Source: Snodgrassella alvi (lineage in GTDB: Bacteria; Pseudomonadota; Gammaproteobacteria; Burkholderiales; Neisseriaceae). From it: a DNA stretch of 64,000 nucleotides. Position numbers and translations under genes: made by a program. Shown one piece after another: positions 1,100-40,354 of this stretch. The stretch is taken from assembly GCF_002777425.1 (NCBI RefSeq), contig NZ_MDVC01000091.1:1-64000 (forward strand), read 5' to 3'. How positions within the stretch are numbered: position 1 is the first letter of the stretch; the number at the start of each line of letters is the position of its first letter. Under the pieces are notes generated by a model. That model worked only from the letters and a program-made list of their open reading frames with translations, searched no databases and was not told the origin of the DNA.

Positions 1100-1987
1100 T
1101 TAATTGCTAAAAATGTTGGCTTTGATGTGATGATAAAAGTTCTCTGCCTGTGCTGACAATTTGCGCTTTTTATGTTTAATTAGGTAGATAGAGCGCTCCA
1201 GATTCATGTCTGTAACATCTTTAATCACTAGATTCTTGTGCTCAAATTGAAATAGTGTCAGTCTGGGCACAAGACCGATGCCGTAGTTGGCTGCTACCAA
1301 TCCCATCATGGTAGTGAGCTGACTAACTTCTACTACATAGTTAATTCCAAATAAATCAACAATTTTATCTACATAATGACGGATGCTGGTACCTTTGGTA
1401 AAGCCTATCATGTCATATTCAAGTAAATCTTTTAATTCAATGTTTTTTTTGCTGGCCAATGGGTGATTGATATGACATATGAGATGAAATTTATCTGAAA
1501 AAAGAAATTCAGAAGAAATTTCGGTCAAGGAAGGGGATTTTGCGGTTAAGGCGAGCTCTGCATGTCCTTGCAATAAGGCTTGCAGACACCGGTCCCATTG
1601 AGTGTCGAGTAATTCAACTTTGATATTGTTATGCTGGTGATGAAAAGTCGCTAAAAGTTGTGAAACCCATTGTACGACGATGGACGGCATAACAGCCACA
1701 ACTAACTTTTCCTGGTGATTGTTTGCATGCGAACGTATTTCTTTGGTGGTACGTTCGTAGGCGAACATAAGTTCGCGTGCCAGTTTAATGAAGTGAATAC
1801 CGTTTTCATTTAATTGAACTTTACGCGTATCCCGGTCAAACAGGCGATAGCCGATTTCCTGTTCTAGATTGGCAATGAGGCTGCTGAATGCAGGCTGAGA
1901 CAGATGAATCTTTTGAGCTGCCCGGGTGAAATTGTCTTCCTCTACCAGGGCCAGAAAAGCTTTTATCTGTTTAATCGATATATTCAT
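1100..1987 (-). CDS. LysR family transcriptional regulator
   Basis: The 295-aa protein has the standard LysR plan. An N-terminal winged HTH (residues 1-60; FTRAAQKIHLSQPAFSSLIANLE, given here as two adjoining pieces: FTRAAQKIHLSQ and PAFSSLIANLE) precedes a periplasmic-binding-protein-like effector domain (about 90-295). It is divergent from the CitMHS transporter gene, with 233 bp between the start codons, which is the usual arrangement for a LysR activator and its target operon. I infer that it senses the transported carboxylate or a pathway intermediate. The inducer cannot be named from sequence. Confidence 0.9.
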   Translation of the reverse strand: MNISIKQIKAFLALVEEDNFTRAAQKIHLSQPAFSSLIANLEQEIGYRLFDRDTRKVQLNENGIHFIKLARELMFAYERTTKEIRSHANNHQEKLVVAVMPSIVVQWVSQLLATFHHQHNNIKVELLDTQWDRCLQALLQGHAELALTAKSPSLTEISSEFLFSDKFHLICHINHPLASKKNIELKDLLEYDMIGFTKGTSIRHYVDKIVDLFGINYVVEVSQLTTMMGLVAANYGIGLVPRLTLFQFEHKNLVIKDVTDMNLERSIYLIKHKKRKLSAQAENFYHHIKANIFSN

Positions 1988-2220: not shown

Positions 2221-3585
2221 ATGCTTGCATTAATAGGCATATTGACTATTGCTACTCTGCTTTTTTGTATTATGAGTAAGCGACTTTCTCCGATAGTCTC
2301 TTTGATTATTATTCCTATTCTGGGTGCTATAGTTGCACTTTATATCGTACCTGTTTTTCAAGGTAGTGTTGAGGCTTTACCGGCTTATTCAACTATTCCT
2401 AAGATGGCAGTTAAGGGGATCTCTAAGCTTGCGCCGATGGCTGCGATGTTTGTGTTTGCCATCATTTTCTTTGGTGTGGTCAGCGATGCGGGGATGTTTG
2501 ATCCGATTATTGCCAAGATACTGAAAGTGGTAGGAACCAGTCCGAAGAAGATTATTATTGGTACTGGTGTTCTGGCGTTGATTGCACATCTGGATGGCAA
2601 TGGTGCGGTCACTTTTCTGATTACTGTACCGGCAATGATTCCATTGTATGACAAACTGGGCATTGATAAGAGAATTCTGGCTGGTATTACTGCACTTAGT
2701 GCTGGGGTGAATTTTTTACCGTGGACAGGCCCGATGATTCGTGCCGCTTCAGCGTTGGACGTATCTACACATGATTTATTTACTCCACTGATTCCAGCGC
2801 AGATTACTGGTCTGGCGTTTATGGTTTTCATGGGATGGTATTGGGGACGTAAGGAAGAAAAACGTCTGGGGCTAGTTGGTGGTGCTGGTGGTGTCGTTGG
2901 TACTGATGAGAAGTCTGAAGTTGTGACTCATTTTAAACCGAAAGCGCTGACTGAAGAAGAGTTGAAATTACGTCGTCCGCATTTATTCTGGCCGAATCTT
3001 ATTCTGGTGATTATAGTCATTTCTCTGATGGTATCAACCAAAATAGCACCAACTATTATTTTTATGGTTGCCTGCTGTATCGCTCTCACTTTGAATTATC
3101 GTAAACCGGCTGAACAATCTGCACGTATCAATGCCCATGCTAAAGGTGCGTTGATGATGGCTACAATTTTGTTTGCTGCTGGGGTATTTACCGGCATTAT
3201 GAGTGAATCAGGCATGCTGAAAGCAATGGCCGTTTCGACTGGTGAATTTGTACCGGATGGTTTGGCCTCACATATCCCTTTTATTGTCAGTCTGATTGCA
3301 ATGCCATTAAGTCTGATCTTTGATCCTGATTCTTATTATTTTGGCATTATGCCAGTGGTGGCAAATATTGGTGGATTCCCACCAATTCAGGTTGCACAGG
3401 CTTCTCTATTAGGTCAAATGACGACAGGTTTCCCGGTGAGCCCGCTTACACCTGCAACTTTTCTGTTGTGCAGTCTGAGTGGGGTGGATTTGGCCGATCA
3501 TCAGAAATTTAGTATTCCAGTTTTGTGGGCAGCATCTATTGTTATGGCGATTGGAGCCATACTGACAGGGGTGTTCCCGTTGTAA
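2221..3585 (+). CDS. CitMHS family carboxylate (citrate-type) transporter
   Basis: This 454-aa polytopic membrane protein belongs to the CitMHS family, whose known members import metal-complexed citrate with protons. Hydrophobic segments run through the whole length. Conserved loops include AHLDGNGAVTFLITVPAMIP (about 122-141), LPWTGPMIRAASAL and the C-terminal FPVSPLTPATFLL, typical of the family. A hydrophilic central loop lies at about 215-255. It is the first gene of an operon with AtuA, CoA-transferase and thiolase genes and is divergent from a LysR regulator, so the true substrate may be another carboxylate than citrate. The ATG follows a strong poly-G ribosome-binding site. Confidence 0.88.
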   Translation: MLALIGILTIATLLFCIMSKRLSPIVSLIIIPILGAIVALYIVPVFQGSVEALPAYSTIPKMAVKGISKLAPMAAMFVFAIIFFGVVSDAGMFDPIIAKILKVVGTSPKKIIIGTGVLALIAHLDGNGAVTFLITVPAMIPLYDKLGIDKRILAGITALSAGVNFLPWTGPMIRAASALDVSTHDLFTPLIPAQITGLAFMVFMGWYWGRKEEKRLGLVGGAGGVVGTDEKSEVVTHFKPKALTEEELKLRRPHLFWPNLILVIIVISLMVSTKIAPTIIFMVACCIALTLNYRKPAEQSARINAHAKGALMMATILFAAGVFTGIMSESGMLKAMAVSTGEFVPDGLASHIPFIVSLIAMPLSLIFDPDSYYFGIMPVVANIGGFPPIQVAQASLLGQMTTGFPVSPLTPATFLLCSLSGVDLADHQKFSIPVLWAASIVMAIGAILTGVFPL

Positions 3586-3630
3586 GAATGCAGTCGGTTT
3601 TTCTTTAATTGCAATAATAAGGTGTATTTT

Positions 3631-4968
3631 ATGAAAAAAATCAGGATTGGTTGTGGTGCCGGATATGGTGGTGACCGGATTGAACCGGCAGTTGAGCTGG
3701 CTCAAAAGGGAAATATTCAGTATCTGGTATTTGAATGTCTGGCAGAGCGGACGATTGCGATTGGCCAGCGGCAGAAAAAACACAATCCGGAAGCAGGCTT
3801 TAATGAATTGTTGGCAGCGCGTATGCAGGCGGTATTGCCGGCCTGTCTGGAAAAGGGTATCAAAATTGTTACCAATATGGGCTCGGCCAATCCGCGTGCG
3901 GCTGCTAAGGTAACTGCTGATATCGCTCGTTCACTGGGTGCTAAAAATCTGAAAATTGCCATTATCGAGGGTGATGATGTTTATGAACAGGTAATACAGC
4001 AGGATTTGCCGCTGGATGAGTTACAAAAACCGGTGTCGCAATGTGGTAAGAAAATTGTTTCTGCCAATGCTTATATTGGTGCAGAACCTATGGTTGAGGC
4101 ATTGAATAATGGTGCTGACATTGTGATTGCCGGCCGTGTTTCTGACCCATCTTTGTTCCTGTCAATCATGATGCATGAGTTCAAATGGGGTGCAGAGGAT
4201 TGGGTTCATCTGGGTAAGGGTACTATCCTCGGGCATTTGCTTGAATGTGCCGGCCAGATTACTGGTGGTTATTTTGCTGATCCGGGCTATCGTGATGTGC
4301 CTGATTTGGCACGTTTGGGCTTTCCGATTGCTGAAATCAGTGCCGATGGTGATGCAGTGATTACTAAGGTTGAAGGTTCTGGCGGTATGGTGACTCCTGA
4401 TACCTGCAAGCAACAGATGCTGTATGAAATTCATCGCCCGGATGAATATAAAACACCAGATGTGATTGCTGATTTCTCTAATATTACTTTCACTCAGGAA
4501 GGTAAAGATCGTGTTGCGGTTACTGGCGGTACTGGTCGCGCTCGTCCTGAAACACTGAAAGTATCAGTAGGCTATGAAGATGGCTTTATTGGTGAAGGGG
4601 AAATGAGTTATGCCGGTCCGGGCGCAGTAGAACGTGGCAAACTGGCTCTGGATATTGTTAAAGAACGCTTTGCCATTTCAGGTGTTACACCACAGGAAGT
4701 GCGCTATGACCTGATTGGGGTTAATTCTTTGCATGGTGCCACTTTATCCTGCAACAGCCAGCCTTATGAAGTGCGTGTCCGTGTTGCTGGCCGTTTTGCT
4801 ACTAAAGCCGAAGCTGCTGTTGTTGGTAATGAGGTGGAAACTTTGTATACCAATGGGCCGGCTGGTGGCGGCGGTGCCATGAAATCTGTTAAGGAAATTG
4901 TAGCGATGGACTCAACTTACATTTCCCGCGATCTGGTTAAAACTAATATTGACTATCTGGAGGTTTGA
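3631..4968 (+). CDS. AtuA family protein, large N-terminal domain (DUF1446)
   Basis: This 445-aa protein matches the acyclic terpene utilisation AtuA / DUF1446 family. It opens KIRIGCGAGYGGDRIEPAVE and contains TNMGSANPRAAAK, AYIGAEPMVEALNNGADIVI, GRVSDPSLF and LECAGQITGGYF. I chose ATG 3631 over a GTG at 3622 because aataaggtg is well spaced from it. The family's biochemistry is unsettled. It was named from citronellol catabolism in Pseudomonas, but no geranyl-CoA carboxylase or citronellyl-CoA genes are present here. Its neighbours are a carboxylate importer, CoA-transferase and thiolase, so I infer a step that turns an imported acid into a CoA-transferase substrate. The partner domain is the next, separate gene. 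Confidence 0.85.
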   Translation: MKKIRIGCGAGYGGDRIEPAVELAQKGNIQYLVFECLAERTIAIGQRQKKHNPEAGFNELLAARMQAVLPACLEKGIKIVTNMGSANPRAAAKVTADIARSLGAKNLKIAIIEGDDVYEQVIQQDLPLDELQKPVSQCGKKIVSANAYIGAEPMVEALNNGADIVIAGRVSDPSLFLSIMMHEFKWGAEDWVHLGKGTILGHLLECAGQITGGYFADPGYRDVPDLARLGFPIAEISADGDAVITKVEGSGGMVTPDTCKQQMLYEIHRPDEYKTPDVIADFSNITFTQEGKDRVAVTGGTGRARPETLKVSVGYEDGFIGEGEMSYAGPGAVERGKLALDIVKERFAISGVTPQEVRYDLIGVNSLHGATLSCNSQPYEVRVRVAGRFATKAEAAVVGNEVETLYTNGPAGGGGAMKSVKEIVAMDSTYISRDLVKTNIDYLEV

Positions 4969-4970
4969 TA

Positions 4971-5273
4971 ATGAAGTTACGTGAAATTGCACATTCCCGT
5001 ACAGGTGATAAGGGTAATACCTCAAATATTTCGGTAATTGCTTATCAACCTGAAGACTATGAGCGTCTCAGAACGGCAGTAACGGCAGAAAAAGTAAAAG
5101 CATTTTTTGCGGATATTGTGACCGGTGATGTGGTGCGTTACGAATTGCCGAATATCGGTGCGCTGAATTTTGTGATGTATGGTGCTTTGGGTGGCGGGGT
5201 AACCCGTACGCTGGCTCATGATATGCATGGCAAAGGATTAAGTGCAGCGATTCTGGATATGGACATTGAGTAA
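4971..5273 (+). CDS. AtuA C-terminal-domain-like small protein
   Basis: This 100-aa protein corresponds to the separate C-terminal region found fused in long AtuA proteins. It begins KLREIAHSRTGDKGNTSNIS and contains the glycine-rich NFVMYGALGGGVTRTL. ATG 4971 is preceded by ggagg at good spacing, only 2 bp after the stop of the large subunit gene, so the two are almost certainly co-translated. I infer they form one complex, because other organisms carry them as one polypeptide. No enzymatic activity can be assigned from sequence. Confidence 0.82.
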   Translation: MKLREIAHSRTGDKGNTSNISVIAYQPEDYERLRTAVTAEKVKAFFADIVTGDVVRYELPNIGALNFVMYGALGGGVTRTLAHDMHGKGLSAAILDMDIE

Positions 5274-5281
5274 TTGCTGAA

Positions 5282-5314
5282 CTGCCGGCAGTGCTTTTCT
5301 GGTACTGCCGGCAG
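5282..5314 (+). other. Perfect GC-rich hairpin between operon halves
   Basis: ctgccggcagt (5282-5292) and actgccggcag (5304-5314) are perfect inverted repeats with an 11-base loop. No U-tract follows, so it is not a classic terminator. It may act as an RNA-stability or processing element separating the AtuA genes from the CoA-transferase genes. Confidence 0.6.
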
Positions 5315-5402
5315 GCAATGCAATATGCCCTGATGTGCTCGTTGACTGGATAGGTGGTTACTTATTCTGTTCGGTTTTTTGTTTATCTCAGGTTAGAAGA
5401 GT

Positions 5403-6056
5403 ATGAAAACGAAACAGCTCAGTTTGGCAGATGTGAAAAATCATCTGTGGGATGGCATGACTATTATGTTTGGCGGTTTTATGGGAGTTGGTACGCCCGC
5501 CAAACTAGTACAGGCAATTCTGGATGCAGGGGTTAAAGATTTAACGATTATTGGCAATGATACTGCGTTTGTAGAAACCGGTGTGGGCCCATTGATTACG
5601 CATAATCGAGTTAAAAAAGTTATTACTTCACATATTGGTACTAATCCGGAAACCGGTAAGAAAATGATTGCTGGTGAGATTGAGGTGGAACTGGTGCCAC
5701 AGGGAACATTGGCGGAACGGATTCGTGCGGCTGGTGCTGGTTTGGGTGGAGTGCTAACGCCAACTGGATTGGGTACGGTTGTTGAGGAAGGTAAACAGAA
5801 AATTGCCGTGAACGGACGGGAATTTTTGCTTGAGTTGCCGTTGCACGCTGATCTGGCCATTGTGGAGGCAAAAACGGCAGATAAGCTGGGTAATCTGGTG
5901 TATGAACTGTCGGCGCAGAATTTTAATCCGCTGGTGGCATTGGCTGCGAAAACAGTGATTGTAGAAGCTAATAATGTGGTTGAAGTAGGCGAAATTACGC
6001 CAGATGCAGCCGTTACACCAGCAGCACTGGTTGATTATATTATTTATCCGGAATAG
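5403..6056 (+). CDS. atoD: CoA-transferase subunit A (acetate/acetoacetate type)
   Basis: The 217-aa protein is the alpha subunit of a family I CoA-transferase. The N-terminus has [18 protein letters not shown] (nucleotide/CoA-binding loop), then [35 protein letters not shown] and [10 protein letters not shown], all typical of AtoD. Such heterodimers move CoA from acetyl-CoA or succinyl-CoA to a short 3-keto or fatty acid. It sits in an operon directly before the beta subunit (13-bp gap). The start is preceded by gaagagt. Acetoacetate is the family's classic substrate, but the actual acid here is unproven. Confidence 0.9.
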
Positions 6057-6069
6057 GGGAAGAATCACC

Positions 6070-6735
6070 ATGAATGCAAAAGAATTAATCGCACGCAGAA
6101 TTGCGATGGAATTTAATGATGGGGATGTGGTGAATCTGGGCATTGGTTTGCCTACTCAGGTGGCCAATTATGTGCCGGAAGATATTCATATTACCCTACA
6201 GTCTGAAAATGGTTTTCTAGGGTTGGCGGCGCTCAATCCGGATGCGGCCAATCCTAATCTGGTGAATGCCGGCGGGCAGCCGTGCGGGATTGCTGCTGGC
6301 GGCTGTACTTTTGATAGTGCGTTTTCATTTGCTCTGATCCGTGGTGGTCATATTGATGCGTGTGTGCTGGGCGGCCTGGAAGTTGATCAGGAAGCCAACC
6401 TGGCGAACTGGATGGTGCCGGGCAAAATGGTGCCGGGTATGGGCGGCGCAATGGATTTGGTTACTGGTTCACGCCGGGTAATTATCGGTATGGAGCACTG
6501 TACCAAACATGGTGAATCCAAAATACTGAAGCAGTGCACGCTGCCGCTGACGGCAAAAAACAAGGTTAATCTGATTGTCACTGAACTGGCGGTGTTTGCC
6601 TTTGCTGACGGACAACTGGTTTTGCAGGAACATGCACCGGGTGTTGACCTGGATACGATTAGAGCTAAAACGCAGGCTGAGTTTGTAGTGGCTGAAGATT
6701 TCCGTGAAATGGTAATCAGTCAGCGTGGTTTGTAA
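6070..6735 (+). CDS. atoA: CoA-transferase subunit B (acetate/acetoacetate type)
   Basis: The 221-aa beta subunit pairs with the preceding gene. It starts MNAKELIARRIAMEF and shows VNLGIGLPTQVANYVP. The catalytic glutamate is in LQSENGFLG (the conserved SENG motif), followed by GGHIDACVLGG and VPGMGGAMDLV. ATG 6070 was chosen because it follows aggggaagaat and gives the usual family length. An upstream in-frame extension would overlap subunit A. The thiolase follows 30 bp later, so the acyl-CoA product would probably be cleaved by it. Confidence 0.9.
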   Translation: MNAKELIARRIAMEFNDGDVVNLGIGLPTQVANYVPEDIHITLQSENGFLGLAALNPDAANPNLVNAGGQPCGIAAGGCTFDSAFSFALIRGGHIDACVLGGLEVDQEANLANWMVPGKMVPGMGGAMDLVTGSRRVIIGMEHCTKHGESKILKQCTLPLTAKNKVNLIVTELAVFAFADGQLVLQEHAPGVDLDTIRAKTQAEFVVAEDFREMVISQRGL

Positions 6736-6765
6736 ACCAGGAAACAATTAGGTTGAGGAGTGAGT

Positions 6766-7947
6766 ATGGAAAGTGCAGTTATTGTCAGTGCGGCGCGTAC
6801 GCCGGTAGGCAGTTTTAATGGTTCATTGGCCAGTGTGGGTACCGTAGACTTGGGCAAGCTGGTGATTGCAGAAGCAATCAGCCGCGCCGGTGTTGAGGGT
6901 ATTCTAGTTGATGAAGTGATGATGGGCAATGTGTTGCAGGCAGGTCTGGGGCAGAATCCAGCACGGCAGGCGGCGCTGGCGGCTGGGCTGGCTGATACAG
7001 TGCCAGCTTATACAGTCAATAAGGTATGTGGTTCTGGATTGAAAACGGTGGCACTGGCAGCGCAGGCCATTGCTGCCAGAGATGCTGAAGTTGTGGTGGC
7101 TGGTGGTATGGAAAATATGAGCCGGGCACCGTATCTGCTTGATAGCCGTGCACGCTGGGGCTATCGCATGGGCAATCAACAGGTTATTGATACTATGGTA
7201 CATGATGGGTTGACTTGTGCTACCAATCATTATCATATGGGGATTACGGCAGAAAATATTGCGCAGAAATACCAGATTAGCCGTCAGGAGCAGGATGAGC
7301 TGGCTTTGCGTTCGCAGCAACTGGCCGCACAGGCAGTGGCTGCCGGTGTGTTTGATGCCGAAATTGTGCCGGTGACGATTAAGTCGCGCAAAGGTGATGT
7401 TGTGTTTGCGCGTGATGAATATCCACGTGCTGAAGCAACAGCTGAGGCGCTGGCCAAATTAAAGCCGGCTTTTAGTACCGATGGTACGGTTACTGCGGGT
7501 AATTCTTCCGGTATTAATGATGGTGCTGCCGCTGTGGTGGTCATGTCTGAAAGCAAAGCCAAAGAACAGGGATTGCAACCTTTGGCGCGTATTCGCAGCT
7601 ATGCCAGTGCTGGTGTAAGCCCGGCACTGATGGGGCTGGGGCCGGTACCGGCTACGCAAAAAGCATTACAGAAAGCTGGCCTGACTTTGGCGGATATTGA
7701 TCTGATTGAAGCAAATGAAGCTTTTGCTGCCCAGTTCCTCGGAGTAGGCCGTGAGCTGCACTTTGATATGGATAAAACCAATGTTCATGGCGGGGCGATT
7801 GCCATCGGCCATCCGATTGGTGCCAGTGGCACGCGCATTCTGGTGAGTCTGCTGTATAGTATGCAGGCCAGAGATGCGCAGCTTGGTTTGGCTACGCTGT
7901 GTATCGGCGGTGGTCAGGGCATTGCTATGATTGTTGAACGGATGTAA
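6766..7947 (+). CDS. atoB: Acetyl-CoA C-acetyltransferase (thiolase)
   Basis: This 393-aa protein has the full thiolase signature. The nucleophilic Cys is in [12 protein letters not shown] (about residue 88), the catalytic His in [14 protein letters not shown] (about 348), and the second Cys in [14 protein letters not shown] (about 378). It interconverts acetoacetyl-CoA and acetyl-CoA. ATG 6766 is preferred over GTG 6760, because gaggag then lies at proper spacing and the length matches the family. It is last in the operon and followed by a strong terminator. In this setting the likely direction is thiolysis, feeding the TCA cycle. Confidence 0.93.
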
Positions 7948-7980
7948 TGCTGTAGATTCAATGTGATGCTGGATTAATAG

Positions 7981-8017
7981 CAGACCATATAACACAAGTG
8001 TTATATGGTCTGTTTTT
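7981..8017 (+). terminator. Rho-independent terminator of the catabolic operon
   Basis: cagaccatataacac (7981-7995) pairs perfectly with gtgttatatggtctg (7998-8012) and is followed by TTTTT. It lies 33 bp after the thiolase stop. Confidence 0.92.
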
Positions 8018-38240: not shown

Positions 38241-39509
38241 ATGTTTATGTGGTATCGGGCAGTATCAGGAAATGAGAGAAAAACCTTTTGGGCATGCTTT
38301 GGTGGCTGGGCACTAGACGCTCTGGAAAGTCAAATGTTCGGTTTAGTTGTCCCATCGCTGATTGCCTATTTTGCCATTAGCAGAGGAGAGGCCGGATTAT
38401 TCAGCAGTGCCACACTGGTCACGTCGGCCTTGGGTGGCTGGTTTGCTGGAGCCCTTTCAGACCGGTATGGACGCGTCAAAACATTGCAAATCATGATTGT
38501 ATGGTTTGCATTTTTTACATTTCTGGCCGCATTTGTAACCGATTACTACTGGCTGCTGGCTTTAAAAGCCTTGCAGGGATTTGGTATTGGCGGCGAATGG
38601 GCGGCCGGTGCTGTACTTATGGCCGAAACCATCACCAGCCAGTATCGCGGTAAAGTCATGGCGATAGTACAGAGTGCATGGGCAGTAGGGTGGGGATTGG
38701 CAGTCATACTATTTTCAGTAACCTTCAGTCTGGCACCAGAAAATATAGCTTGGCGCATCATGTTTGCCGTAGGCTTACTGCCGTCATTACTAATTTTTTA
38801 TGTACGCCGGCACGTACAGGAACCGGTAAAACAAAATACAGTAATACAGAAAAACGAAGACAGGCAACCAATAGCTAGCGCATTGTTCGGCATTTTTTCA
38901 CCTTCATTGATTCGCACTACCTTACTCGGTGGTTTATTGGGTCTTGGCGCACATGGCGGCTATCACGCCATCATGTCGTGGCTGCCTACCTACCTCAAAG
39001 TAGAACGCAACCTTTCCGTGCTTAATTCCAGTGGCTATCTGGCGGTAATTATTTTTGCCTTCTGGTGTGGCTGTATGGCCAGCTCAATCCTGCTCGACAA
39101 AATCGGCAGACGTTTTAATGTTGCCCTGTTTGCCATCTGCTGCGTCATCACCGTACGCATTTACCTGTTTATGCCCTTAACCAACACCCAGATGCTGTTC
39201 CTTGGCTTTCCACTGGGCTTTTTTGCCGCCGGCATTCCCTCCAGTCTGGGCGCATTGTTTAATGAGCTTTATCCACAGCAGTATCGTGGCGCCGGAGTAG
39301 GCTTCTGTTACAACTTCGGCCGTATTCTGTCCTCAATATTTCCGTTCCTCGTGGGGCACATGAGCGCATCAATGTCTCTGGGGTCAGCCATTGGTATTGA
39401 TGCCAGTTGGGCTTACTCAATAGTAGTGATTAGCGTCTTGCTGCTACCCGAAACCAAAGGGCGCGATTTAAAACAGATTAATCCGGATGGGCAGATTTCT
39501 GAGAAATAA
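38241..39509 (+). CDS. MFS transporter, aromatic-acid:H+ symporter type
   Basis: This 422-aa protein has about 12 transmembrane helices and the MFS loop signatures: DRYGRVKTLQI after TM2, FGIGGEWAAGAVLMAETI, and DKIGRRFNVALF in the second half. The N-terminal WALDALESQMFGLVVPSLIA with the central acidic residues resembles the AAHS (aromatic acid:H+ symporter) branch. The gene 20 bp downstream encodes a lactonase-like amidohydrolase, so an aromatic or dicarboxylic acid derivative is a reasonable substrate. ATG 38241 follows a purine-rich but weak ribosome-binding site. Confidence 0.85.
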   Translation: MFMWYRAVSGNERKTFWACFGGWALDALESQMFGLVVPSLIAYFAISRGEAGLFSSATLVTSALGGWFAGALSDRYGRVKTLQIMIVWFAFFTFLAAFVTDYYWLLALKALQGFGIGGEWAAGAVLMAETITSQYRGKVMAIVQSAWAVGWGLAVILFSVTFSLAPENIAWRIMFAVGLLPSLLIFYVRRHVQEPVKQNTVIQKNEDRQPIASALFGIFSPSLIRTTLLGGLLGLGAHGGYHAIMSWLPTYLKVERNLSVLNSSGYLAVIIFAFWCGCMASSILLDKIGRRFNVALFAICCVITVRIYLFMPLTNTQMLFLGFPLGFFAAGIPSSLGALFNELYPQQYRGAGVGFCYNFGRILSSIFPFLVGHMSASMSLGSAIGIDASWAYSIVVISVLLLPETKGRDLKQINPDGQISEK

Positions 39510-39529
39510 AAATAGAAAAGAGAAATAAA

Positions 39530-40354
39530 ATGAATCAAGTAATAACTGGCAGAATAGACAGCCATGCACATGTATTTAATCTGGCTTTGCCAATGGTAGC
39601 CAGCCGGCGCTATACACCGGCACAAAGTGCGCCACTGGAAAACTATCTGGCTCATCTGCACGGCCTTGGCTGCACGCACGGCGTACTGATTCAGCCGAGC
39701 TTTCTTGGTTGTGATAACAGCTTTATGCTACAGGCCATCGCACAGGCCGCGCCCCGTCTCAGAGGCGTAGCCTGCGTCGATCCCACAATCACCTTGCCTG
39801 AGCTACAGGCAATGGATAGGGCAGGCATAGTGGGCATACGCCTGAATGTTATAGACGGCACCCAGCCCCAGCTGCAATCCGCTCCGTGGCAAAACCTGCT
39901 CGAAAAAATCAAAACCCTTAACTGGCATGTGGAACTGCATTGCCACAGTAACAAACTCGACACCATGATTACCACCCTGCTCAAACACCAAATCCGCGTA
40001 GTAGTCGACCATTTCGGCCGGCCAGCGGATGGTGTACCCGCTCGTGATAATGGTTTTCAGCGGCTACTGCAATGGGGGCATAGCGGAATGGTGTGGTGCA
40101 AACTTTCCGCGGTATACCGCATCAGTGCTGCCGCGGCCGACGGGCATAAATTTTTTGCCGCCGCCATCCCCTTATTACTTGAAAATTTCGGCAGCCACCG
40201 CCTGATGTGGGGCAGTGACTGGCCGCATACCCAGTATGAACAACAAATCAACCCCGAGTATCTGGCTACCCAACTGAATATGCTGTTACAGGATAAACAA
40301 CTGGCACCAGCCTTATTGTGGGATACACCAGCAAAACTGTTCAGGTTTATCTAA
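39530..40354 (+). CDS. Amidohydrolase, 2-pyrone-4,6-dicarboxylate lactonase-like
   Basis: The 274-aa TIM-barrel protein belongs to the amidohydrolase_2/LigI-like branch of the superfamily. It has IDSHAHVFNLALP (metal-site HxH), LNWHVELHCHSNKL, VVVDHFGRPADGVP and LMWGSDWPHTQYE, all characteristic of PDC lactonase-type enzymes. It probably hydrolyses a lactone or related acid in the cytoplasm. It follows the MFS gene by 20 bp, so the two form an operon for uptake and first use of one compound. The exact substrate is not deducible. There is no adjacent regulator. Confidence 0.85.
   Translation: MNQVITGRIDSHAHVFNLALPMVASRRYTPAQSAPLENYLAHLHGLGCTHGVLIQPSFLGCDNSFMLQAIAQAAPRLRGVACVDPTITLPELQAMDRAGIVGIRLNVIDGTQPQLQSAPWQNLLEKIKTLNWHVELHCHSNKLDTMITTLLKHQIRVVVDHFGRPADGVPARDNGFQRLLQWGHSGMVWCKLSAVYRISAAAADGHKFFAAAIPLLLENFGSHRLMWGSDWPHTQYEQQINPEYLATQLNMLLQDKQLAPALLWDTPAKLFRFI

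What the first reader, a model, noticed from the sequence alone, without database searches (positions are those of the whole stretch)
2221..7947. Carboxylate-use operon built around a split AtuA pair, without the terpene genes that named the family
Seen: CitMHS transporter, AtuA large part, separate AtuA C-terminal part (2 bp after the large-part stop), CoA-transferase A and B, thiolase, one terminator, and a divergent LysR gene. Known: AtuA was named from citronellol catabolism, where geranyl-CoA carboxylase is needed; none is here. Inference: AtuA/DUF1446 converts an imported acid into a 3-keto acid that the CoA-transferase activates and thiolase cleaves to acetyl-CoA. This would be an uncharacterised pathway feeding the TCA cycle.
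Basis: partly seen in the sequence, partly recalled or inferred. Interest (0 to 1): 0.72.

Follow-up and report, generated by a model that had tools for sequence, protein, structure and literature searches.

The report
Bee gut symbiont's probable hydroxymethylglutarate operon
A six-gene operon in the bee gut bacterium Snodgrassella most likely imports 3-hydroxy-3-methylglutarate, an acid that bees secrete into their gut, and breaks it into acetate and acetoacetate, which would fill a gap that a published study of this symbiosis left open.

Summary
The split pair is the normal form (adjacent in 79 of 80 relatives). Terpene use is excluded for this genome, whose only carboxyltransferase proteins have AccA and AccD size.

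Both AtuA parts match, by predicted fold, the two chains of a solved citramalate lyase. The CoA-transferase and thiolase are close relatives of the acetoacetate (ato) enzymes. Thiolases of separate origin stand beside the same module in enteric bacteria and Rhizobium. An Orbaceae operon still holds atoE. This points to acetoacetate as product, hence 3-hydroxy-3-methylglutarate (HMG) as substrate.

S. alvi is reported to consume host HMG and release acetate, with the first two steps "not annotated". This genome has no HMG-CoA lyase and no isocitrate lyase; the latter fits HMG serving only as co-substrate.

I judge it a new variant of a known lyase kind, supplying a missing pathway. The substrate is inferred, not measured, and whether HMG is cleaved free or as CoA ester is open.

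The parts
1100..1987 (-). LysR-type regulator, divergent; likely senses the substrate
   Evidence: PF03466 and PF00126; 97-98% identical LysR at the same place in L009 and L010, 70% in Orbaceae L014
2119..2133 (.). Conserved block in the LysR-CitMHS intergenic region, possible regulator site
   Evidence: 13 of its 15 positions are invariant in 7 of 7 aligned sequences, Orbaceae included; function inferred
2221..3585 (+). CitMHS-type carboxylate importer; substrate proposed to be HMG
   Evidence: TIGR00784 368 bits; of the genome's four PF03600 proteins, this is the only one that matches TIGR00784
3631..4968 (+). AtuA large subunit, proposed acetate-releasing HMG lyase
   Evidence: PF07287 531 bits; model pLDDT 92.6; best PDB match 9evf chain A, E 2.5e-25; profile finds 9erq at E 3.1e-6
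4971..5273 (+). Small AtuA partner subunit
   Evidence: PF23544 129 bits; model pLDDT 88.1; only PDB match with E under 0.001 is 9evf chain B, E 4.8e-5; no match to that chain by sequence
5403..6056 (+). CoA-transferase subunit A (AtoD type)
   Evidence: NF007394 376 bits; 63% identical to E. coli AtoD, 70% to the genome's own ato copy
6070..6735 (+). CoA-transferase subunit B (AtoA type)
   Evidence: TIGR02428 302 bits; 70% identical to E. coli AtoA, 72% to the own ato copy
6766..7947 (+). Thiolase (AtoB type); GTG 6760 is the alternative start
   Evidence: TIGR01930 504 bits; 70% identical to E. coli AtoB, 74% to the own ato copy
7979..8014 (+). Intrinsic terminator of the operon
   Evidence: 16-pair stem followed by T run

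Best explanation
The operon is a 3-hydroxy-3-methylglutarate (HMG, meglutol) catabolic operon. CitMHS imports HMG. The AtuA pair, a two-subunit acetate-releasing lyase built like citramalate lyase CmlAB, cleaves HMG into acetoacetate and acetate. The AtoDA-type CoA-transferase moves CoA from acetyl-CoA or another acyl-CoA to acetoacetate, and the thiolase splits acetoacetyl-CoA with CoA into two acetyl-CoA. LysR responds to the substrate. A variant order, in which HMG is activated first and AtuA cleaves HMG-CoA to acetoacetyl-CoA and acetate, gives the same kinds of end product; I put the free-acid order at about 60:40 over it. In Snodgrassella this would feed on HMG that the bee secretes. Shown by computation: operon anatomy, conservation, fold match of both subunits, ato-type enzymes, and absence from this genome of HMG-CoA lyase, a terpene-type carboxylase and isocitrate lyase. 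Reported by others: HMG consumption with acetate release. Inferred: the substrate and every reaction step.
For: Window is Snodgrassella (AtuA 98% identical to S. communis). S. alvi depletes host HMG, gains growth from it only with citrate, makes acetate from it, and its first two steps are unannotated (PMC11343714). AtuA and its partner match chains A and B of citramalate lyase 9evf. CoA-transferase and thiolase are ato type, with a complete separate atoSC-atoDAEB operon in the same genome and atoE still inside the Orbaceae operon. Thiolases of separate origin sit behind the same lyase module. No HMG-CoA lyase: the only HMGL-like protein is LeuA. No isocitrate lyase, so C2 units alone cannot support growth. 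In two haloarchaea the AtuA gene directly follows degradative HMG-CoA reductase. AtuA is in 11 of 14 Snodgrassella genomes and 1 of 69 others of the family.
Against: No experiment names the substrate. Sequence identity to CmlA is low (17% in the structural alignment) and the small partner does not match CmlB by sequence. 29 of 80 relatives lack CitMHS directly upstream, and 25 of 80 have CitMHS and both AtuA parts but no CoA-transferase beside them, so the substrate may differ there, or other genes may do the later steps. Three of five haloarchaeal plasmid copies of the reductase have no AtuA next to them. CitMHS is named for citrate, and this one is the only TIGR00784 match among the genome's four PF03600 proteins, so it could carry citrate.
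Confidence: 0.7

Rival explanations
1. The operon serves citramalate or citrate. CitMHS imports it, the AtuA pair splits citramalate to pyruvate and acetate (or citrate to oxaloacetate and acetate), and the CoA-transferase activates the acetate.
For: Best structural match of both subunits is citramalate lyase; the importer matches the citrate:proton symporter model; citrate is a main substrate of S. alvi (PMC11343714); 25 of 80 relatives have CitMHS and the AtuA pair without CoA-transferase.
Against: Neither route needs a thiolase, yet ato-type thiolases of separate origin are joined to the module. True CmlA-type genes are distant in the tree and pair with DUF4387, not PF23544. The genome has other carboxylate carriers: a DASS symporter, a MatC-type carrier and a CitMHS_2 protein.
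Confidence: 0.12
2. HMG is the substrate, but the CoA-transferase first makes HMG-CoA and the AtuA pair cleaves it to acetoacetyl-CoA and acetate. This is a variant of the best explanation and its odds are contained in it.
For: Terpene AtuA is described as acting on a CoA ester (PMC4847356); two haloarchaeal operons pair AtuA with HMG-CoA reductase.
Against: The CoA-transferase is 63-72% identical to acetoacetate CoA-transferases, and many relatives have no CoA-transferase gene next to the lyase.
Confidence: 0.28
3. The substrate is another tertiary or 3-hydroxy acid that yields a different 3-keto acid, for example a longer or substituted HMG relative.
For: Relatives stand beside ABC or tripartite transporters or beside 3-hydroxybutyrate-oligomer hydrolase genes, so the family has more than one setting.
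Against: Ato-type enzymes handle acetoacetate; S. alvi uses HMG and no gene for its first steps was known (PMC11343714).
Confidence: 0.12
4. The operon is an acyclic terpene (citronellol) pathway, as the family name says.
For: The family name alone.
Against: No geranyl-CoA or methylcrotonyl-CoA type carboxylase: only two carboxyltransferase-domain proteins, with open frames of 329 and 303 aa. Terpene-type clusters have a fused AtuA of 595-601 aa beside carboxylase genes.
Confidence: 0.02

Closest known systems
Citramalate lyase CmlAB (PDB 9erq, 9evf; AtuA family + DUF4387)
   Same: Both subunits match by fold; a large and a small chain encoded side by side; acetate released from a tertiary hydroxy acid (release by citramalate lyase)
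   Different: Low identity (17%); the small partner is PF23544, not DUF4387, and does not match CmlB by sequence; no methylaspartate genes; joined to CoA-transferase and thiolase
AtuA of the acyclic terpene (Atu) pathway
   Same: Same Pfam domains, PF07287 and PF23544; described as an acetate lyase acting on isohexenyl-HMG-CoA (PMC4847356, passages)
   Different: Fused single chain beside carboxylase genes there; split and without carboxylase here; separate branch of the tree
E. coli atoDAEB acetoacetate operon
   Same: CoA-transferase A and B and thiolase 63, 70 and 70% identical, in the same order
   Different: No atoE in this operon, no atoSC beside it; LysR and the CitMHS-AtuA module in front; a complete ato operon lies elsewhere in the same genome
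HMG-CoA lyase route of leucine and ketone body metabolism
   Same: Would turn the same C6 skeleton into acetoacetate and a C2 unit (recalled chemistry)
   Different: No HMG-CoA lyase in this genome; the AtuA pair would release acetate, not acetyl-CoA

Membership tests
AtuA family (PF07287 + PF23544) | Both domains over the curated cut-offs | tested here: met
   531 bits (cut-off 22.8) and 129 bits (cut-off 27)
Acyclic terpene utilisation pathway | Geranyl-CoA carboxylase in the genome | tested here: not met
   Only two carboxyltransferase proteins, 329 and 303 aa frames, AccA and AccD size
Acyclic terpene utilisation pathway | Fused AtuA chain of about 600 aa beside carboxylase genes | tested here: not met
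   Split genes here; 595-601 aa beside carboxylase genes in three terpene-type clusters, two domains confirmed in two of them
Citramalate lyase CmlAB | Fold of both subunits | tested here: met
   9evf_A E 2.5e-25, TM 0.73/0.71; 9evf_B E 4.8e-5, TM 0.68/0.65; predicted models, not structures
Citramalate lyase CmlAB | DUF4387 small subunit and sequence match to CmlB | tested here: not met
   Partner is PF23544; no CmlB match
Citramalate lyase CmlAB | Cleaves citramalate | not testable with these tools
   Needs enzyme assay
ato (acetoacetate) operon | AtoD, AtoA and AtoB type enzymes | tested here: met
   63, 70 and 70% identity to E. coli; NF007394 over cut-off
ato (acetoacetate) operon | AtoE and AtoSC alongside | tested here: not met
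   Absent from this operon; AtoE present in the Orbaceae relative; the full set is elsewhere in the genome
HMG catabolic pathway (proposed) | Genes needed for HMG depletion, growth gain and acetate release | not testable with these tools
   Needs deletion strains

The most novel reading that the evidence does not exclude
The AtuA pair is a new enzyme, an HMG acetate-lyase that cleaves free HMG without prior CoA activation. Together with ato enzymes recruited more than once it forms an uncharacterised HMG pathway, which Snodgrassella and an Orbaceae lineage share from an enteric gammaproteobacterial source and use to live on an acid secreted by the host. The PF07287 superfamily would then be one class of acetate-releasing lyases for tertiary hydroxy acids: citramalate, HMG and isohexenyl-HMG-CoA.
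Probability: 0.4. Interest if true: 0.8.

Novelty: new variant of a known kind. Interest (0 to 1): 0.67.

Why it matters
HMG was the one metabolite depleted by all five Snodgrassella strains tested in a study that could not assign the first two steps of its use (PMC11343714). This operon is a concrete candidate for those steps, and one deletion would test it. It would explain why HMG speeds growth but does not support it alone: only C2 units arise and there is no isocitrate lyase. It would also give a function to family members that stand, as in the loci seen here, far from any terpene genes, and correct a misleading label.

Tried and rejected
Terpene reading: rejected for this genome. HMG-CoA lyase elsewhere in it: rejected, the only HMGL-like protein is LeuA. 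The split AtuA as unusual: rejected, 79 of 80 relatives. A wider test of HMG-CoA lyase (NF004283 over cut-off, 28 genomes) gave 2 of 17 genomes with the compact full operon and 11 of 11 with other layouts, but the two sets differ in taxonomy, so I give it little weight; I sent 28 of the possible genomes. The CoA-transferase tree does not resolve the order of recruitment; the thiolase tree does, with groups for the AU test named after the tree was seen, and only two of the three Rhizobium-like thiolases were long enough to enter. The AtuA tree is a quick one with several long branches, so its deep order is unsure.

Literature: searches listed no paper that I could see tying these genes to HMG, and no paper on 9erq. 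The library holds only open-licence papers, so this is not proof of absence. The Tn-seq paper on S. alvi is not held. One search listed the best 40 of 166 plasmid records, a spread of 40.

Rows left out: one search found an AtuA frame in only 64 loci, and I do not rest on its counts. One search left out L001, L037, L094-L103 and three near-identical genus copies (L106, L107, L112); loci whose AtuA lies on the minus strand of the fetched stretch, L117 (G008) among them, were never in it. Searches left out L001 and L094-L103; 101 and 103 also L133; 103 also L126. Some of the 80 loci are cut by contig ends, so genes counted as absent may lie beyond. In one search, L066 and L078 count as full operons under wide distance limits; 18 are compact. 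L037 is the same record as L003.
Full report
What is there. The window carries the operon as described: a divergent LysR gene (1100-1987, minus strand), CitMHS (2221-3585), AtuA (3631-4968), a small protein whose ATG lies 2 bases after the AtuA stop (4971-5273), CoA-transferase A (5403-6056) and B (6070-6735), thiolase (6760 or 6766-7947) and a 16-pair terminator at 7979-8014. Family assignments are far over their cut-offs.

Whose genome. A scan of named genomes with an AtuA alignment places the window in Snodgrassella: AtuA is 98% identical to S. communis LMG 28360 and to strain Nev4-2, and the seven genes are 96-100% identical there, in the same order. Snodgrassella is a gut symbiont of honey bees and bumble bees (PMC11343714).

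Conservation. The scan kept the best 80 of 501 confirmed stretches. Among these 80, the small partner directly follows AtuA in 79, CitMHS directly precedes it in 51, and a divergent LysR-like gene is found in 50, some at only 22-28% identity. CoA-transferase and thiolase are also present in 20, of which 18 are compact: five Snodgrassella or uncultured Neisseriaceae, one Orbaceae, nine enteric-type loci (Budvicia, Pectobacterium, Brenneria, Samsonia, Entomohabitans, Yersinia massiliensis and one labelled Martelella alba that groups with Yersinia) and three Rhizobium-like; the two looser ones are L066 and L078. Five have the CoA-transferase but no thiolase, and 25 only CitMHS, AtuA and partner. 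In the genus, 11 of 14 genomes have AtuA (misses: G073, 60% complete, and G076 and G078, 99% complete), against 1 of 69 other genomes of the family; that one has the minimal form.

Not terpenes. Terpene-type clusters on Acinetobacter, Rhodococcus and Achromobacter plasmids have one AtuA chain of 595-601 aa beside acyl-CoA carboxylase genes; both domains were confirmed in the first two. They lie on long branches outside the group that holds the window. The window genome has only two carboxyltransferase-domain proteins, of AccA and AccD size.

What the AtuA pair works like. A model of AtuA (pLDDT 92.6) has one convincing match in the PDB, chain A of 'citramalate lyase - ADP - pyruvate complex' (9evf; E 2.5e-25, TM 0.73/0.71, 17% identity); the other two with E under 0.001 are aspartate kinase chains with TM under 0.2. 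The model of the small partner (pLDDT 88.1) has chain B of the same complex as its only match with E under 0.001 (E 4.8e-5, TM 0.68/0.65). By sequence, the AtuA profile finds the same lyase at E 3.1e-6, but the small partner finds nothing. A Prevotella plasmid shows the setting of the solved enzyme: an AtuA-family gene and a DUF4387 gene beside methylaspartate mutase, methylaspartate ammonia-lyase and fumarase genes, matching CmlA and CmlB at E 5.8e-150 and 7.4e-27. Citramalate lyase yields acetate and pyruvate (PMC8473912, passages). Terpene AtuA is described as a lyase that removes acetate from 3-hydroxy-3-isohexenylglutaryl-CoA (PMC4847356, passages). Inference: the superfamily releases acetate from tertiary hydroxy acids, and HMG, with methyl in place of isohexenyl, would give acetoacetate and acetate. 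The ADP in the title of 9evf may mean a nucleotide in the mechanism or may mimic part of CoA; I could not read the entry or a paper on it.

What the product is. The CoA-transferase subunits and thiolase are 70, 72 and 74% identical to a second locus in the same genome (contig C91, 141945-149261), a complete atoSC-atoDAEB operon, and 63, 70 and 70% identical to E. coli AtoD, AtoA and AtoB. In the Orbaceae operon an AtoE-type gene (TIGR00366, 703 bits) lies between CoA-transferase B and thiolase, the E. coli order. In the thiolase tree the Snodgrassella and Orbaceae operon thiolases group with E. coli AtoB and the Snodgrassella ato locus (98/92), apart from the enteric operon thiolases and the Rhizobium ones. 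Holding the enteric and Snodgrassella/Orbaceae operon thiolases in one clade is rejected (p 3.5e-4), as is holding all three groups together (p 5.8e-9, groups chosen after seeing the tree). AtuA shows another pattern: the Snodgrassella and Orbaceae copies nest with the enteric ones (support 99 for that set). So thiolases of separate origin stand behind one lyase module, which is good evidence that its product is acetoacetate or acetoacetyl-CoA. The CoA-transferase tree leaves this question open. Two Snodgrassella genomes, G071 and G072, have AtuA but no AtoE, so there the operon may be the only ato-type set.

An independent link to HMG. On plasmids of Salinigranum and Halalkalicoccus, degradative HMG-CoA reductase is directly followed by AtuA and a small protein; in Salinigranum the reductase (TIGR00532, 431 bits) and the PF23544 partner were confirmed. 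The other three haloarchaeal copies in the list have no such neighbour, and a Rhizobium copy has HMG-CoA lyase nearby instead.

Fit with reported physiology. Quinn et al. 2024 (PMC11343714; abstract, sections 10-12 and passages) report that S. [quoted passage not shown] The operon predicts these results: it yields acetate and acetyl-CoA only, and the window genome has no isocitrate lyase. The only HMGL-like protein of the window genome is LeuA. G068, a single contig of 2,527,978 bases with the whole operon, may be the type strain wkB2; that identity rests on recall of its genome size.

What stays open. Whether AtuA acts on free HMG or on HMG-CoA. For the free acid: the CoA-transferase is of the acetoacetate type, and many genomes have the lyase module with no CoA-transferase beside it. 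For HMG-CoA: the terpene relative acts on a CoA ester, and the haloarchaeal operons make HMG-CoA. Whether CitMHS carries HMG, citrate or both is untested; it is the only TIGR00784 match among the genome's four PF03600 proteins, the others being a DASS symporter, a MatC-type carrier and a CitMHS_2 protein. Relatives with other transporters or neighbours may have other substrates. The direction of transfer between Snodgrassella, Orbaceae and enteric bacteria is not shown; nesting of the Snodgrassella AtuA suggests a gammaproteobacterial source.

Noticed in passing
L092:10167-12206, L003/L037:10993-12780, L052:11422-13434: A 3-hydroxybutyrate-oligomer hydrolase gene (PF10605 confirmed in L092 and L052) lies close to the AtuA pair in Pseudomonas luteola, Microvirga and Tardiphaga. 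It may be an esterase that frees the substrate from a conjugate (guess).
   Followed up: partly
Genomes G076 and G078: Two 99% complete Snodgrassella genomes lack both AtuA and AtoE; they would be natural negatives for HMG use.
   Followed up: no
Contig C113 of the window genome, 95805-97624 (L116): The LeuA frame starts about 90 codons upstream with a stretch that matches the small 'carph-isopro' domain model (NF046037, 62.6 bits): a fused N-terminal extension or a different start.
   Followed up: no
L052:8001-11422: In a Tardiphaga MAG the small AtuA partner lies about 1.7 kb further downstream than in the other 79 relatives.
   Followed up: no
window 38241-40354: An MFS transporter gene followed by a gene whose product looks like an amidohydrolase/lactonase (by eye, no family search): possibly another small-acid uptake pair.
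   Followed up: no
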